In this document: positions 4,802 to 13,475 of the stretch, one piece after another
Layout of the letters: each line of letters starts with the position of its first letter
Numbering within the stretch: the first letter of the stretch is position 1
NCBI GenBank assembly: GCA_025060635.1
Contig: JANXBN010000007.1
Coordinates: forward strand, 62,001-126,000
DNA length: 64,000 bases
Origin: Candidatus Kryptonium sp.
GTDB lineage: Bacteria > Bacteroidota > Ignavibacteria > Kryptoniales > Kryptoniaceae
Direction: 5' to 3'
The notes under the pieces: model-generated
Told to the model about the DNA's origin: nothing
Databases searched by the model: none
Seen by the model: only the letters and a program-made list of their open reading frames with translations
Position numbers and translations under genes: made by a program

Positions 4802-5751
4802 ACTACCTTGCTGGCTTACGTAATTTACACTTCGGTGATATTGTTAACATAGTTTTTTACTTATTTTTGATTTTTGTTTCACTCGTTTTTTCACATCAAA
4901 TGAAACTCTGGTGGTTGATAGTTCTATTTAATCTTTTGGTTATTTTTTTCGTCATATATGTCGCTGTAAGATGGGAGGGGTCGCGGAATCCAGAAATTTT
5001 CTCAGCGAGGCGCTTTGTGAGGGAATGGTATCTTGTGCCACTTATTCTCTTGACATTTAAAGAAATTTATTTCTTCATTAACTTTTTGAAACTGCCAGAT
5101 TATGATTGGATTTTGATGAAAATTGACTACATAATTTTTGGCGCGCATCCGACTCATGTTTTGGCAAAAATTAGCAATCCTGTTTTGACGGAATTTTTAC
5201 AAATTGTTTATTCTACTTTTTATTTCCTTCCGATAATTCTCGGTTATGACTTCTACCGCAGAGGCGATCTTGTGAGATATCGCTATGTCATATCAACAGT
5301 TGTGTATGGTTTTTATCTTTCATACATTGGTTATCTTCTTGTCCCAGCTATTGGTCCGCGGTTTATACTTCATGATTTTTCAAAGCTTGACGAAGAGCTA
5401 CCAGGGCTTTTGCTAACGAAGCCACTTCGTTGGATAATTAACACGGGTGAGTCAATTCCGCCTGGCGTTCCTAATCCAGCTGATTATGCTCAAAGGGATG
5501 TTTTTCCGAGCGGGCACACGCAACTTACGCTCGTTATTATATATCTTTCTATCGTGCTGAAATCAAAAACGAAGTATTTTCTGATCCCGAACGGTATTTT
5601 GTTAATTTTTTCAACCGTCTATCTTCGCTATCATTATGTAATTGATTTGATCGCTGGGTTTCTATTTGCTGCTTTTACAGTTGCAACTGCTCCGTATCTT
5701 TTCAATCAATGTGAAACAAAAATAGGGCGAAGGAATGCAGAAAAAATCTGA
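4798..5751 (+). CDS. PAP2-superfamily integral membrane phosphatase
   Basis: 317 residues with six or more hydrophobic segments. The C-terminal half has PAP2 active-site motifs: F-P-S-G-H-T-Q (motif C2) and R-Y-H-Y-V-I-D (motif C3, catalytic His plus Asp). The usual C1 lysine motif is not obvious, as in the inositolphosphotransferase-like PAP2_3 branch. It probably acts on a lipid phosphate or phospholipid headgroup in the inner membrane. It is coupled to rsmA by a 4-base overlap and overlaps the OPT transporter start by 17 bases. The exact substrate cannot be told. Confidence 0.85.
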   Translation: MNYLAGLRNLHFGDIVNIVFYLFLIFVSLVFSHQMKLWWLIVLFNLLVIFFVIYVAVRWEGSRNPEIFSARRFVREWYLVPLILLTFKEIYFFINFLKLPDYDWILMKIDYIIFGAHPTHVLAKISNPVLTEFLQIVYSTFYFLPIILGYDFYRRGDLVRYRYVISTVVYGFYLSYIGYLLVPAIGPRFILHDFSKLDEELPGLLLTKPLRWIINTGESIPPGVPNPADYAQRDVFPSGHTQLTLVIIYLSIVLKSKTKYFLIPNGILLIFSTVYLRYHYVIDLIAGFLFAAFTVATAPYLFNQCETKIGRRNAEKI

Positions 5752-7690
5752 TGTCAAGCCGTATGTTCCAGCTGAAACAAAATTAACAGAAATGACTTTA
5801 AGAGCAGTTTTAATCGGTGTAGTTATGGCGGTAGTGCTCGGCGCAGCGAATACATACATTGGTCTAAAAGCTGGGATGACTGTGTCAGCGACATTTCCAG
5901 CTGCAGTTGTTGCGATGGCAGTTATGAGAGTTATGCGTGGTTCAATACTTGAGGAAAACATCGCAAGGACAACCGCGTCGGTCGGTGAAGCACTCGCAGC
6001 AGGAGCAATTTTCACTGTGCCTGCTTTTGTAATTTCTGGTGTTTGGAGCGACTTTAACTATTGGGAAAGCACAGTGATAATGCTTGTTGGCGGACTTCTT
6101 GGAGTTTTATTCATAATTATTTTGAGAAGACCGCTTGTCAATGATCCCGAACTCCCTTATCCTGAGGGAGTTGCTTGCGCTGAAATGGTAAAAGCTGGAC
6201 AAAAAGGAGAAACAGGTGCAAAATATGTTTTTAGTATGATGGGCGTTTCGGCATTGGTTGAACTTTTTAAAAACGCAAGAGGAATAAAATTATTTGGGGA
6301 AACGATAAGTGGATTTGTTGAGTTTGGAAAGTATAAAATTCAACTTTTTTCAGGTGCAAATTCAGCAGTGAGCACTCAAACATATACTGGTGGAGTTTTT
6401 CTCTCTACTCCAGTCGCTTCTCCAGCGTTAATTGGAGTTGGATACATAATTGGACCGAGGTTATCGGCAATTGCGTTTTCAGGCGGGGTTCTCGGGTGGT
6501 GGTTATTTATTCCGCTCGTTATGTTTTTTAACACTGGAATTGGCGATATGCTTAAAAATGGGGTTAGTTGGGACGAATTAACTCATTCTGTGTGGTATTA
6601 TCAGGTAAGACCAATTGCCGTTGGAGCTATGATAGTTGGTGCATTTCATACGCTTTGGAAGATGAGAACACAACTTTTTCAAGGTATAGCAAAAGGGATA
6701 AGAGATGCATCTCAAGTTAGAAGTGGAAAAGTTGAATATTCAAGATTGGAGGATGATCTGCCTATGCCACTTGTGATCGGAGCTATTTTCTTGCTTGTCG
6801 TACCGATTACATTGATTTACTACTATTTCACGAAAAATTTGATCAGTGCTGTCATTGCAGCAATCGTTATGACATTAACAGGATTTTTGTTTTCAGCTGT
6901 CGCAGGTTATCTCATTGGAGTTATGGGGGGTTCAAATAATCCAATTTCTGGACTTACTCTTTCATCGCTTGTAATTGCAGCGGTTTTGATGGTTGCTCTC
7001 GGCGTTAAGGGGACTGCGGGTGTTGAGGTTGTCCTCGGCGTTGCTGCTGTTGTATGCACTGCGCTTGGAATTGCTGGCGATATGTTGCAAGATTTGAAAG
7101 TCGGGCAACTTCTTGGAGGAACGCCCAGAAAGATGCAAATTGCGGAAATTATCGGTGTCTCTTTTACTGCTTTCGTGCTTGTGTTTCCAATGTCAATTCT
7201 TCATAAAGGAACAGAAGGCGGAATTGGAGGTAAGTATTTACCAGCTCCGCAAGCAGGATTAATGAGCGTTATGTCAAAAGGAATTGTGAGCGGAGAGATT
7301 GCTTGGCCATTGATAATTTTTGGTGCCGTCCTTGCTTTTGTTTTAATTCTTCTTAAATCACCATCCCCAACTTTGATCGCTGTCGGAATGTATCTTCCTT
7401 TTGAGACAACTTCAGCTATATTCGTTGGCGGTTTAATAAAGTATGTTTTTGATTTGATCATAAAAAGAAAATCTTATTCGGAATCTGAACTTGTCCAAAT
7501 AGAAAATCGTGGAATACTTCTTGCCTCTGGACTTGTTGCAGGAGAGTCAATAATGGGTGTATTGCTTGCGGGCTTGTATCTTTTGAATGTTAATTTGCCA
7601 CATATATCTGAAAATCCATTCTTGGGGCTTTTGATATTTCCTCTTGTTGCGTTAATTTTAATTGCTATTCCGCTTAAAAAGTTGAAATAA
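5735..7690 (+). CDS. OPT-family oligopeptide transporter
   Basis: 651-residue polytopic membrane protein of the oligopeptide transporter (OPT) family, likely a proton-coupled symporter of peptides or metal-chelate-like substrates. Recognisable segments are LGAANTYIGLKAGMTVSATFP near the N-terminus, P-Y-P-E-G-V-A-C-A-E, the G-G-S-N-N-P-I-S-G-L block, and SPSPTLIAVGMYLPFE near the C-terminus. Length is normal for prokaryotic members. It starts inside the end of the PAP2 gene and is followed after 15 bases by the CARF-HEPN gene. The secreted peptidases encoded further on could supply peptides, but that link is inference. Confidence 0.93.
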   Translation: MQKKSDVKPYVPAETKLTEMTLRAVLIGVVMAVVLGAANTYIGLKAGMTVSATFPAAVVAMAVMRVMRGSILEENIARTTASVGEALAAGAIFTVPAFVISGVWSDFNYWESTVIMLVGGLLGVLFIIILRRPLVNDPELPYPEGVACAEMVKAGQKGETGAKYVFSMMGVSALVELFKNARGIKLFGETISGFVEFGKYKIQLFSGANSAVSTQTYTGGVFLSTPVASPALIGVGYIIGPRLSAIAFSGGVLGWWLFIPLVMFFNTGIGDMLKNGVSWDELTHSVWYYQVRPIAVGAMIVGAFHTLWKMRTQLFQGIAKGIRDASQVRSGKVEYSRLEDDLPMPLVIGAIFLLVVPITLIYYYFTKNLISAVIAAIVMTLTGFLFSAVAGYLIGVMGGSNNPISGLTLSSLVIAAVLMVALGVKGTAGVEVVLGVAAVVCTALGIAGDMLQDLKVGQLLGGTPRKMQIAEIIGVSFTAFVLVFPMSILHKGTEGGIGGKYLPAPQAGLMSVMSKGIVSGEIAWPLIIFGAVLAFVLILLKSPSPTLIAVGMYLPFETTSAIFVGGLIKYVFDLIIKRKSYSESELVQIENRGILLASGLVAGESIMGVLLAGLYLLNVNLPHISENPFLGLLIFPLVALILIAIPLKKLK

Positions 7691-7705: not shown

Positions 7706-8935
7706 ATGGGGCAAGAAGCCAAAAAAGTTGTAATGTTTGTAACTGTTGGAACTGGTAGGGATAGAGCAGATATAGCTTCAGCAATTGTAAAGAGTATAAG
7801 ATCTTATAATCCTAACATTGTCGTATTTCTATGCACGGAAAAAAGCAAGCAGGAAACTTTGCCGATTATTGAAGAAGGGTTAGCTAAGGAAAACATTACT
7901 GTAGAGCAAGAAATTAAATTAATTAAAGATGAAAACGACCTTGAAGCGGTTAAGCAAATTTGTTCAAACGAGATGAGAAAATTTGAAAGGGATAGAAAGT
8001 TTGTTGAATACACTTCCGGGACGAAGGCGATGTCGGTTGGGCTTGTATTAGCTGGGTTGGAAAATGGAGCTGAAAAATTTTCTTATATTGCCGGCAATAG
8101 GGATGAAACGGGGCGTGTTATTCCTGGCACTGAAAGATTTATATCATTTGAACCAACCGTTATTTATGCAGAGGTGTTTTTCAAAAAAGCAATTGAATAT
8201 TTTAACGATGGTATGTATGGGAGCGCGAGCAAGATGTTTGAAAAATGCCTTGAAATTTATCGGGAAGAATCGTTTAAGAAAAAAGTTGAAACATTAAATA
8301 ACTTGTGCAAGGTATATCAAAATTGGGATTTGTTCAAGCATAAAGAAGCATTTGAAACCGCTAAAGAAATAGATTTGGATATTCTTGCTGAATTTGAAGC
8401 AAAACGAAAATTTGAGTCAAATCGTGATAGTTTGGCTTTTCTTAACAAAGAAAGCGTGTTTTCACCGCTAAAAGCCATAGACCTTTTAAGAAACGCTGAA
8501 CGAAGGATTGAAAGGGAGCGCTATGACGATGCAGTTGCAAGGTTGTATAGATTACTTGAATACATCATTCAAATTGGGATAGATAAACTAGGTCTATATT
8601 CCGAACCTGGAAAGATTGACCTTTCTAAACTTCCTGATGATTTAAAAGAGAAGTATCAGCGAAGTGAAATTGCGCTTGCAAAGTCTGCTGAATTGCTCAA
8701 TGATCTTGGGGACGAAATGGGGAAAGAATTGTATGAAAGCATAACACAGGGGAACTTGAAAAAAATTTTGAGTGCGAGGAATAATTCAATACTTGCTCAT
8801 GGATTTACACCTATTGATAAAGAAACAGCCGAGGAATTTCGTGATATTTTGAAGAAGATATTAGCGAAGTATTTCGGTTCTGATTTTGAGCGATGGTATG
8901 AGGATCTTGAGTTCGTCAAGTTGAAAGTTTTGTAA
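7706..8935 (+). CDS. CARF-HEPN protein of the Cas02710/Csm6-like group
   Basis: 409 residues. Residues 1-155 look like a CARF ligand-binding domain: strand 1 plus loop V-T-V-G-T-G-R-D (12-19) and the conserved E-Y-T-S-G-T-K-A-M-S block (101-110). The family (TIGR02710/Cas_Cas02710) normally senses cyclic oligoadenylate made by type III CRISPR complexes. The C-terminal helical domain contains R358-N-N-S-I-L-A-H365, an R-x6-H HEPN ribonuclease motif. The expected activity is ligand-activated RNA cleavage in the cytoplasm. No cas gene or CRISPR array is in the window; the gene sits 15 bases behind the OPT transporter. Family call is strong; activation by cOA is inference. Confidence 0.88.
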   Translation: MGQEAKKVVMFVTVGTGRDRADIASAIVKSIRSYNPNIVVFLCTEKSKQETLPIIEEGLAKENITVEQEIKLIKDENDLEAVKQICSNEMRKFERDRKFVEYTSGTKAMSVGLVLAGLENGAEKFSYIAGNRDETGRVIPGTERFISFEPTVIYAEVFFKKAIEYFNDGMYGSASKMFEKCLEIYREESFKKKVETLNNLCKVYQNWDLFKHKEAFETAKEIDLDILAEFEAKRKFESNRDSLAFLNKESVFSPLKAIDLLRNAERRIERERYDDAVARLYRLLEYIIQIGIDKLGLYSEPGKIDLSKLPDDLKEKYQRSEIALAKSAELLNDLGDEMGKELYESITQGNLKKILSARNNSILAHGFTPIDKETAEEFRDILKKILAKYFGSDFERWYEDLEFVKLKVL

Positions 8936-9022: not shown

Positions 9023-10168
9023 ATGATAAAAATAGGTGTTCCAAAAGAAACCTATCCAGGTGAAACGAGGGTAGCACTTATCCCAGCCAATATCCAACAG
9101 TTTAAAAAAGCAGGGGCTGAGGTTATAGTTCAATCAGGGGCGGGTGAAAAAGCAGGTTACCGAGATGAAGAGTATCTTGAAAAAGGGGCGCAAATTGTAA
9201 AATCTCGGGAGGAAGTTTTTGCAAATGCTGATGTTATCCTTCAGGTTAGAGCTCTTGGGGCAAACCCAGAAGAGGGCAAAAAGGATATCCAATTAATGAA
9301 AGAAGGGCAAATTCTAATTGGATTTCTTGAGCCATTTTTTGCGAAAGATTTAATTGAAGAAGTAGCGAAAAAGGGAGTTATTTCCTTCGCTCTTGAGTTA
9401 TTGCCGAGGACTTCAAGAGCTCAAAGTATGGATGTTTTATCTTCAATGGCCACTATAGCTGGATACAAGGCGGTTTTGCTTGCAGCGAGTTATTTACCAA
9501 GAATGTTTCCGATGCTTACGACCGCAGCTGGTACGGTTTTGCCTGCTAATGTTTTTGTCATAGGTGCTGGTGTTGCAGGGCTTCAAGCAATTGCAACGGC
9601 GAAAAGATTAGGCGCAGTTGTAAAAGCGTATGATATAAGACCAGCAACAAAGCAAGAAGTTGAAAGCTTGGGTGCAAAGTTCGTTGAACTTGGACTTGAA
9701 TCGCAGGAAGCTGAGGACAAGAGTGGATATGCAAAAGATATGGGTGAAGAATTTTACAAGAAACAAAGGGAAATGTTGACGAAGATAATTTCTGAAAGTG
9801 ATGTCGTGATTTCCACGGCAGCTGTTCCTGGTAAAAGAGCACCTGTTTTGATAACCGAAGATATGGTAAAAGGAATGAAACCAGGTTCTGTTATCGTTGA
9901 CCTTGCAGCTGAAAGAGGTGGGAATTGTGAATTGACGAAGGCTGGAGAAGTCGTTGAAAAATATGGAGTGATAATCATAGGTCCAGTTAATGTTCCAGCA
10001 ACAGTTCCATATCACGCAAGCCAGATGTATTCAAAAAACATTACAAACTTCTGTTCCCTTTTCATCAAGAATGGTGAGATAAACTTGAATTTAAACGACG
10101 ATATTTTAGCAAGCACATTGCTCACGAAAGACGGGAAACTTGTAAATTCAATTTTTGGTCAATCTTAA
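9023..10168 (+). CDS. pntAA: NAD(P) transhydrogenase, alpha subunit part 1 (NAD-binding domain I)
   Basis: 381 residues matching domain I of proton-translocating transhydrogenase, which binds NAD(H) and exchanges hydride with NADP(H) on PntB. It opens with M-I-K-I-G-V-P-K-E-T, as in the alanine-dehydrogenase-like fold. It contains R-A-Q-S-M-D-V-L-S-S and the Rossmann G-A-G-V-A-G-L-Q-A-I. Here the alpha subunit is split in two, a common arrangement. The next gene starts 24 bases downstream and pntB follows, forming one operon that makes NADPH using the proton gradient. Confidence 0.95.
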   Translation: MIKIGVPKETYPGETRVALIPANIQQFKKAGAEVIVQSGAGEKAGYRDEEYLEKGAQIVKSREEVFANADVILQVRALGANPEEGKKDIQLMKEGQILIGFLEPFFAKDLIEEVAKKGVISFALELLPRTSRAQSMDVLSSMATIAGYKAVLLAASYLPRMFPMLTTAAGTVLPANVFVIGAGVAGLQAIATAKRLGAVVKAYDIRPATKQEVESLGAKFVELGLESQEAEDKSGYAKDMGEEFYKKQREMLTKIISESDVVISTAAVPGKRAPVLITEDMVKGMKPGSVIVDLAAERGGNCELTKAGEVVEKYGVIIIGPVNVPATVPYHASQMYSKNITNFCSLFIKNGEINLNLNDDILASTLLTKDGKLVNSIFGQS

Positions 10169-12035: not shown

Positions 12036-12767
12036 TTATTTTGAAATATCGCTCATGGAATCAAAAGATTTCGCAACTTTACGGAAAATTTCGTCAAACA
12101 TTTTTTCAGTTAACTTTCCTGTGAAGGTGTTCCTTTGGCTTGGATGGTAAGAGCAAATTAAGTTTATCATTTTCTCGTTTTGTGGATTAACAAATGTTAA
12201 TTCGTTCCCGTGGTAAAATTTCAAATTTCCGCTTGATTTTTCAAATTCAAAGTCAAACAATGTTTTCACAACCGTTGAAAACGCAAGTTGTCCGAGCGTG
12301 ATAATTATTTTTACATTTTTGAGAAGTTCAAATTCACTTTTCAAATATATATTGCAATTCTCAATCTCTTTTTTAGTCGGCTTATTTTCTGGCGGGGCGC
12401 AACGAACGATGGCTGTTATATAACAATTGTTAAGTTTTAAACCATCATCTCTTGATATTGATTCGGGTTGATTAGCGAAGCCGAATTTGAACAGCGCCCT
12501 ATAAAGCCATTCGCCACTTCTATCACCTGTGAACATTCTTCCAGTCCTGTTTCCACCATGTGCAGCAGGAGCAAGTCCAACAATCAAAATCTCAGCTTCT
12601 TCATCTCCGAAGCCTGGGACTGGTTTTCCCCAATAATCCCAGTTTTTAAATCTTGAAATTTTTTCCTTCGCAATTTTCTCACGCCATTTAACAAGTCGTA
12701 AGCATTTGCGGCAGTTTATAACTACATCGTTAAGTTCTTCAAACGATTTAAATTTCAATTTTGACAT
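12036..12767 (-). CDS. udgb: Type-5 uracil-DNA glycosylase (UDGb), Fe-S
   Basis: Removes uracil, and often hypoxanthine, from DNA; typical of thermophiles, where cytosine deamination is fast. Motif A reads G-L-A-P-A-A-H-G-G-N-R-T-G-R-M-F-T-G-D (64-82), the family-5 version without the catalytic Asp/Asn of other families. Motif B is H-P-S-Q-R-N. Four cysteines (C19, C22, C123, C138) are placed as expected for the 4Fe-4S cluster. 243 residues, usual length. Its start lies inside the end of the nucleotidyltransferase gene (20-base overlap), so it is translated with the HEPN/MNT pair. Confidence 0.92.
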   Translation of the reverse strand: MSKLKFKSFEELNDVVINCRKCLRLVKWREKIAKEKISRFKNWDYWGKPVPGFGDEEAEILIVGLAPAAHGGNRTGRMFTGDRSGEWLYRALFKFGFANQPESISRDDGLKLNNCYITAIVRCAPPENKPTKKEIENCNIYLKSEFELLKNVKIIITLGQLAFSTVVKTLFDFEFEKSSGNLKFYHGNELTFVNPQNEKMINLICSYHPSQRNTFTGKLTEKMFDEIFRKVAKSFDSMSDISK

Positions 12768-13098
12768 CTATCATCCTGTCATACCATTTTTCAAATTCAA
12801 CCGATGTCGCAAGGTGGATTTCCAATGGTGCGTTGAAATTATATCTTTCAAGAATTAGTTTTTTCAATTTAGCTCTGCCGATTAAATCTTTGGGGACTTC
12901 TTCGCTTACGATTAAAATATCAATGTCACTGAAAACATTCCAATTTCCTTTGACAACCGAGCCAAAGACGAAAACTCTGAAATCTTTAAAATATAATCTC
13001 AATAACTCCTTTATCTCCTTTGCGATCGTCATATAATTTTTGAAAAACGGCTCTTTTTCCTCTTTCATTCGCCTTAACATATCCATATAAGCGTTCAT
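12748..13098 (-). CDS. Minimal nucleotidyltransferase (MNT) domain protein
   Basis: 116 residues with the pol-beta-type signature G46-S47-x10-D58-I-D60 (FGSVVKGNWNVFSDIDI). The third carboxylate may be the Glu of the L-E-I-H-L strand. Such small proteins usually pair with a HEPN partner; characterised relatives AMPylate the partner or act as antitoxins. It overlaps the HEPN gene by 4 bases upstream and the UDG gene by 20 bases downstream. The substrate is unknown. Confidence 0.85.
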   Translation of the reverse strand: MNAYMDMLRRMKEEKEPFFKNYMTIAKEIKELLRLYFKDFRVFVFGSVVKGNWNVFSDIDILIVSEEVPKDLIGRAKLKKLILERYNFNAPLEIHLATSVEFEKWYDRMIDVKIEI

Positions 13099-13475
13099 GT
13101 TAACGACTCAACTATCTCTTTTATTTGATAAACTAACTTTTTCATTTTTTCAACTGGGGTTCTGTTGAACTGGACATCAAAATATCTGGTCGCAAGATAT
13201 GCTTCTTCAAGTAGAAAGATGGTTTCTGTTTCTTTTAGGTTCTCAAGTGTTTCAATTTTATCTTTTTGTTCAATTATTTTCGCACATTCATCTATCAATT
13301 TTAGCAAACTATGAGTTTTGGGATAATCACCAACCTTTTTCCATAGTAGGTACTTTAAAAACAATTGGGCTGATTGTTCGTAATTAAATGCTGCAAAGTT
13401 GAAATCTTCTTTTGAGAGAAGGTAATCTGCAATTTCCAAGAATTTCAATGCATTTTTTTTCAAAAACTCGCCCAT
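13095..13475 (-). CDS. HEPN-domain protein (PF05168-like)
   Basis: 126 residues, all helical. It has the HEPN family layout F-N-F-A-A-F-N-Y-E-Q-S-A-Q-L-F-L-K, then K-T-H-S-L-L-K-L, and an A-T-R-Y-F-D motif (95-100). There is no R-x4-6-H ribonuclease motif, so it is probably not an active HEPN RNase. It may bind nucleotide or be the target of the adjacent nucleotidyltransferase. It touches the end of kbl at position 13475, so it is probably transcribed from the tdh-kbl promoter. Confidence 0.82.
   Translation of the reverse strand: MGEFLKKNALKFLEIADYLLSKEDFNFAAFNYEQSAQLFLKYLLWKKVGDYPKTHSLLKLIDECAKIIEQKDKIETLENLKETETIFLLEEAYLATRYFDVQFNRTPVEKMKKLVYQIKEIVESLT

What the first reader, a model, noticed from the sequence alone, without database searches (positions are those of the whole stretch)
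7706..8935. Orphan CARF-HEPN ribonuclease attached to an oligopeptide-transporter operon
The CARF signature (VGTGRD, YTSGTKAM) and the R358-x6-H365 HEPN motif are both intact, so the protein should be a ligand-gated RNase. Such proteins usually sit by type III CRISPR genes, yet here it follows an OPT transporter by 15 bases after rsmA and a PAP2 gene, with no cas gene in 64 kb. Either it serves a distant type III locus in trans, or it senses another nucleotide in a different stress circuit.
Basis: partly seen in the sequence, partly recalled or inferred. Interest (0 to 1): 0.65.

Follow-up and report, generated by a model that had tools for sequence, protein, structure and literature searches.

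The report
Relocated Csm6-type CRISPR RNase, working in trans
A bacterial gene that looked like a CRISPR alarm-triggered RNA cutter with no CRISPR nearby is a normal member of the known Csm6/TIGR02710 family that was inserted behind an unrelated transporter gene, while the same genome carries CRISPR arrays and part of a type III CRISPR system on other contigs that could supply its trigger.

Summary
ORF 7706-8935 (409 aa) is an intact CARF-6H-HEPN protein of NCBIfam TIGR02710 / Pfam Cas_Cas02710 (Csm6), 15 bp after an OPT gene, with no cas gene in the window. The puzzle mostly dissolves on a genome-wide view. The genome has about 800 CRISPR repeats and a 15 kb contig (C12) with a type I-B operon, two CARF sensor genes, cmr1 and the first 395 aa of Cmr2/Cas10, cut off by the contig end. 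The gene is absent from six congeners. The nearest of them has the empty site (OPT, 75 bp, pntA), so the OPT neighbourhood is incidental. Of 28 relatives with at least 5 kb of flank on both sides, 27 lie beside cas genes. The one other clear orphan belongs to a genome whose type III-A locus, on another contig, has a GGDD cas10 and no recognised effector. A characterised homologue, TTHB144, is a cA4-activated RNase that also degrades cA4, and its key residues align with K107 and R358/H365. Best reading: a horizontally gained type III effector RNase acting in trans, probably on cA4 made by the III-B Cmr complex. The Cas10 cyclase half is not in the assembly, so the signal source is inferred. New member of a known kind.

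The parts
7706..8935 (+). CARF-HEPN ribonuclease gene (TIGR02710 / Csm6 family), 409 aa
7727..8170 (+). CARF sensor domain, about residues 8-155 (Rossmann alternation E8-14 H21-34 E38-43 ... E144-148)
   Evidence: PF23400 over residues 35-133 above cut-off; model secondary structure; profile matches to the CARF ring nuclease Sso2081, Cam1 and Card1
7745..7762 (+). VGTGRD loop, residues 14-19; T16-G17 align with T10-T11 of TTHB144
   Evidence: alignment of 87 family members
8009..8032 (+). YTSGTKAM, residues 102-109; K107 aligns with the cA4-binding K94 of TTHB144
   Evidence: PMC6599890. The scan used this peptide as a seed, so its conservation in the set is biased
8165..8377 (+). Csm6 6H linker domain, residues 154-224
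   Evidence: PF22205 35.6 bits, cut-off 27.6; 43 of the 50 aligned family members match
8477..8860 (+). HEPN RNase domain, residues 258-385
   Evidence: PF09670 102 bits; all 50 aligned family members match
8777..8800 (+). HEPN catalytic motif R358-N-N-S-I-L-A-H365 (R-x6-H); aligns with R361/H368 of TTHB144
   Evidence: R and H kept in 86 of 87 aligned rows, the other row having a gap
5735..7690 (+). OPT oligopeptide transporter; conserved left neighbour, incidental to the RNase
   Evidence: PF03169; rsmA-PAP2-OPT order kept in congeners with the intact block, with different genes to the right of OPT
9023..10168 (+). pntA-like gene, right border of the insertion; directly follows OPT in congener G004

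Best explanation
The gene encodes a homodimeric Csm6-type effector. The N-terminal CARF pair binds a cyclic oligoadenylate, most likely cA4. Binding opens the paired HEPN R-x6-H site, which then cuts single-stranded RNA without sequence guidance, and the CARF site probably also cuts cA4 slowly, so the enzyme switches itself off. It is a recent single-gene gain in this species, inserted between OPT and the pntA-pntB operon, and not part of a transport operon. Its signal would come in trans from the type III-B (Cmr) complex on contig C12, fed by the many CRISPR arrays. This lineage has deleted the genus-typical III-A (csm) module, leaving the first codons of csm1. Shown: family membership, motifs, model fold, empty site in the closest congener, presence of cmr1 and of the N-terminal part of Cmr2, CRISPR arrays, scar of the III-A loss. 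Inferred: gain rather than repeated loss, ligand identity, dimer, RNase and ring-nuclease activity, an intact Cas10 cyclase, signalling in trans, transcription by read-through from OPT.
For: Family, domain and residue matches. Model fold closest to TtCsm6 and EiCsm6. The homologue TTHB144 (TTH_RS10730, 28.6% identity, beside cas1/cas10/csm genes) is a cA4-activated RNase that degrades cA4, needing K94 and H368 (PMC6599890). The gene is absent from 6 congeners and congener G004 has the empty site. Own genome: Cas10b/Cmr2 N-terminus, Cmr1, Cas6, two CARF genes and a I-B operon on C12, and 803 repeat matches against 0 for the reversed control. Relatives: 69 of 80 loci have cas genes in reach; with at least 5 kb on both sides, 27 of 28 do. 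Sister L088 (47% identity, support 0.98) follows csm5 in a III-A operon. The family sits beside complete III-B (cmr) operons in several genomes. Of 13 genomes searched, nearly all chosen because no cas10 lay near their family gene, 10 carry a cas10 palm domain. Orphan L089 coexists with a GGDD cas10 locus without a recognised effector.
Against: The palm domain of Cas10 and Cmr3-Cmr6 are not in this 97%-complete, 154-contig assembly. The contig ends inside cmr2, so an assembly gap and a decayed locus cannot be told apart. C12 carries two other CARF proteins that could already be the effectors of this locus. No expression or activity data exist. Ligand size is extrapolated from a homologue of only about 29% identity.
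Confidence: 0.78

Rival explanations
1. Stranded effector: the gene arrived without a working signal source. The Cmr locus is a remnant with no active cyclase, so the RNase is idle or kept only by chance.
For: No Cas10 palm domain and no Cmr3-Cmr6 in the assembly. The III-A module of the genus was deleted in this genome. The gene is found in one species of its genus only.
Against: All catalytic and CARF residues are intact with no frameshift. cmr2 is open to the very end of the contig, as expected for an assembly break. About 800 repeats and a I-B adaptation set (cas1, cas4, a cas2-like frame) suggest living CRISPR immunity.
Confidence: 0.14
2. Non-CRISPR circuit: the protein senses a nucleotide made by another enzyme and acts as a stress RNase linked to peptide transport or membrane lipid metabolism.
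For: Tight spacing to OPT (15 bp). CARF domains outside CRISPR exist, for example RtcR (PMC9650030, PMC7790460; abstracts).
Against: The closest congener has the same operon without the gene. No OPT gene in 85 relative loci. The family is overwhelmingly cas-linked. The genome has type III genes and CRISPR arrays. The cA4-binding lysine is kept.
Confidence: 0.05
3. Old family of dedicated stand-alone CARF-HEPN RNases: the window gene and L089 are a clade that left cas operons long ago.
For: L089 is also an orphan and falls in the same 4-member clade (support 0.99).
Against: The other two members of that clade, L088 and L090, lie in type III operons, and L088 is the sister of the window gene. 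The two orphans have different neighbours (OPT/pntA against galU), which points to separate relocations.
Confidence: 0.03

Closest known systems
TTHB144 of Thermus thermophilus HB8 (TIGR02710; PMC6599890)
   Same: Same family and length, aligned over 92% of the query; K94, R361 and H368 align with K107, R358 and H365.
   Different: TTHB144 lies beside cas1/cas2/cas10/csm genes; the window gene is alone. 28.6% identity.
TtCsm6 (TTHB152; PDB 5FSH, 8JH1) and EiCsm6 (PDB 6TUG)
   Same: CARF-6H-HEPN order; best fold and profile matches.
   Different: About 21% (TtCsm6) and 16-17% (EiCsm6) identity in the structural alignments; EiCsm6 is the cA6-type enzyme; both are CRISPR-linked.
L088, bacterium SKW194 (MAG), Csm6-like gene after csm5
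   Same: Closest relative found, 47% identity, sister in the tree.
   Different: Sits at the end of a III-A operon.
L089, Candidatus Calescibacterium orphan CARF-HEPN
   Same: 47% identity, also no cas gene within 10 kb on either side; its genome has a GGDD cas10 elsewhere.
   Different: Lies after galU, not OPT; probably an independent relocation.
Effector-lacking type III loci with proposed inter-locus signalling (PMC11229360)
   Same: The concept: cOA made at one locus activates effectors encoded elsewhere.
   Different: That survey treats loci that lack effectors; this is the mirror image, an effector lacking a locus.

Membership tests
TIGR02710 / Cas_Cas02710 (Csm6 subfamily of CARF-HEPN effectors) | Score above the curated family cut-offs | tested here: met
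   TIGR02710 195.1 bits (cut-off 83.9); PF09670 102.2 bits (27)
TIGR02710 / Cas_Cas02710 (Csm6 subfamily of CARF-HEPN effectors) | N-terminal CARF domain with the ligand-pocket lysine | tested here: met
   PF23400 above cut-off; profile of 50 family members matches Sso2081, Cam1 and Card1 CARF chains; K107 aligns with TTHB144 K94
TIGR02710 / Cas_Cas02710 (Csm6 subfamily of CARF-HEPN effectors) | HEPN R-x4-6-H catalytic motif | tested here: met
   R358-x6-H365; conserved in 86 of 87 rows
TIGR02710 / Cas_Cas02710 (Csm6 subfamily of CARF-HEPN effectors) | cOA-activated RNase activity and CARF ring-nuclease activity | not testable with these tools
   Known for TTHB144 (PMC6599890); needs an assay for this protein
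Type III CRISPR accessory effector | Encoded beside type III cas genes | tested here: not met
   No cas profile match in the 64 kb window
Type III CRISPR accessory effector | Type III interference genes in the same genome | tested here: met
   cmr1 and the N-terminal 395 aa of Cmr2/Cas10b on contig C12
Type III CRISPR accessory effector | Cas10 with an intact GGDD cyclase in the same genome | tested here: inconclusive
   Contig ends inside cmr2; no palm domain elsewhere in the assembly. Related Cmr2 of congeners G002 and G003 keep GGDD
OPT transport operon component | Association with OPT conserved in relatives | tested here: not met
   Absent from all six congeners; no OPT gene in 85 relative loci

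The most novel reading that the evidence does not exclude
A type III system reorganised into a dispersed signalling network: the lineage deleted its genus-typical III-A module, now has III-B, kept two CARF sensors on C12 (one a CARF-sigma54 activator fusion), and recruited an unlinked Csm6 by single-gene transfer, so that cA4 from one Cas10 drives both RNA decay and sigma54-dependent transcription in trans.
Probability: 0.25. Interest if true: 0.5.

Novelty: new member of a known kind. Interest (0 to 1): 0.3.

Why it matters
It is a clean natural example of an effector unlinked from its signal source, with an empty site in a sister species as evidence of the insertion. That makes in-trans sharing of cyclic oligoadenylate signals, proposed from surveys, directly testable. 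Surveys that count effectors only inside cas loci will miss such genes. The protein itself is an ordinary family member.

Tried and rejected
(1) PF22335 (Cas10 palm) on the own genome: no match, which alone would have suggested 'no type III'. The RAMP, Cas1 and Cas10b searches then found C12, so that inference was dropped. (2) An old specialised relation to OPT: rejected. (3) Phage origin: no match in 50,697 phage records. (4) Plasmid hits are distant (29% identity or less) and mostly Thermus, so no direct donor was found. (5) Base composition does not mark the gene as foreign (GC 0.36, GC3 0.32, like its neighbours), so gain rests on the empty site, the absence from all congeners and the tree; loss in all six congeners remains formally possible. 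(7) In the script the family query row carried gap signs and that step was wrong; it was redone. The letters printed beside the positions come from the same fault and were not used. (8) A Pfam scan of a 46-residue probe typed in to look up Cas10 model names gave nothing. (9) A literature search on TIGR02710 returned only unrelated 'CARF' papers.

Full report
Observation. The ORF at 7706-8935 (+) is real and intact: 409 aa, ATG start, 15 bp after the OPT stop at 7690. It scores far above the curated cut-offs of TIGR02710 and PF09670 (Csm6 HEPN) and above those of PF22205 (Csm6 6H) and PF23400 (Card1 CARF). PADLOC calls it CARF1-CARF_HEPN. A profile of 50 family members finds Thermus Csm6 chains (E about 1e-19) and, with the N-terminal part, the CARF ring nuclease Sso2081, Cam1 and Card1. 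The AlphaFold2 model (mean pLDDT 95) has a Rossmann-type N-terminal domain, a helical linker and a helical HEPN domain; its best PDB matches are TtCsm6, then Csm6' and EiCsm6.

Residues. In 87 aligned rows R358 and H365 are kept in 86, with a gap in the other. K107 is kept in all, but the scan seeded on YTSGTKAM, so that number is biased. K107, R358 and H365 fall on K94, R361 and H368 of TTHB144. TTHB144 is a cA4-activated, non-specific RNase that slowly degrades cA4 in its CARF domain; K94A abolishes both activities and H368A only the RNase (PMC6599890). The most likely ligand is therefore cA4. This is an inference across about 29% identity.

Insertion. None of six congeners has the gene. The rsmA-PAP2-OPT order is conserved in the five congeners with the block assembled, at 84-87% identity for OPT; in G005 only a fragment of OPT was recovered. 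The gene to the right of OPT differs: a porin-like gene in G001, a peroxiredoxin-like gene in G002, ABC transporters in G006 (read from the translations); in G003 OPT ends at the contig end. In G004, the closest by OPT, OPT is followed after 75 bp by the same pntA-pntA2-pntB-uracil-DNA-glycosylase order as in the window: an empty site. No transposase gene or obvious repeat was seen at the junctions. Base composition matches the neighbours. A gain in this species is the simplest reading.

Where relatives live. One scan of 84,980 species genomes gave 80 loci. 69 contain cas genes in the fetched stretch and 53 contain cas10. Among the 28 with at least 5 kb on both sides of the gene, 27 have cas genes. 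The usual place is after csm5 or cmr6 and before cas1/cas2. The sister of the window gene, L088 (47% identity, support 0.98), follows csm5. The one well-flanked exception, L089 from Candidatus Calescibacterium, lies after galU. Its genome has cas10 on another contig with GGDD and csm genes; the flanking genes tested matched no PADLOC effector model. It looks like a second, independent case of the same arrangement.

Own genome. Contig C12 (15,085 bp) carries, from its first base, the N-terminal 395 aa of Cmr2/Cas10b running off the contig end, then cmr1, and divergently cas6, a CARF7 gene, a CARF5-sigma54-activator-HTH gene, cas8b, cas7b, a cas5-like gene, cas3, cas4 and cas1, followed by a cas2-like frame. 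The repeat common to the genus matches 803 places with up to two mismatches, against none for the reversed control, and arrays lie at or near the ends of contigs such as C4 and C5. No palm domain and no RAMP other than cmr1 is in the assembly. In G001 and G004 the stretch between cas6 and CARF7 holds a III-A module with a GGDD cas10. In the window's genome that module is gone, and about 20 bases matching the start of csm1 remain after cas6. The I-B/III-A composite locus of the congeners matches the one described for Candidatus Kryptonia (PMC4737851), so the organism is probably a Kryptonia-type thermophile; this identification is my inference, not a tool result.

Mechanism. The best-supported explanation is a CARF-HEPN RNase acting in trans for the III-B complex. 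It is consistent with the proposal that type III loci may signal to effectors encoded elsewhere (PMC11229360). The missing step is proof that Cmr2 in this species is whole and cyclase-active. If it is not, the gene is a stranded effector. A non-CRISPR circuit has no positive evidence here.

Verdict. The sequence observation is confirmed; the OPT attachment is incidental; the protein is an ordinary member of a known family in an unusual place. Modest interest.

Noticed in passing
L071 4492-6210 (G000 contig C12): CARF5 (Cas_NE0113) domain fused to a sigma54-interaction AAA domain and a Fis-type HTH; conserved in congeners at the same place (59-68% identity). The genome encodes sigma54. A candidate cOA-controlled sigma54 activator.
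   Followed up: partly
L071 3401-3800: Scar of a deleted type III-A module: about 20 bases matching the start of csm1 remain between cas6 and the CARF7 gene.
   Followed up: yes
G000 contigs C4, C5, C9 and others: About 800 CRISPR repeats in a 2.5 Mb genome, with arrays at or near contig ends.
   Followed up: partly
L071 1-1187 and L183 (G006:C2) 49-510: In two species cmr2 is cut by a contig start, leaving only an N-terminal part; chance or a common cause of assembly breaks is unknown.
   Followed up: no
window 12748-13475 (-): HEPN-domain gene followed by an NTP_transf_2 (MNT) gene, overlapping by 4 bp: a HEPN-MNT toxin-antitoxin type pair, just past the pnt operon.
   Followed up: no
L180 11357-13740 (Calescibacterium cas10): The cas10 HD part and the GGDD palm part lie in two separate reading frames (246 and 526 aa): a split gene or a frameshift.
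   Followed up: no
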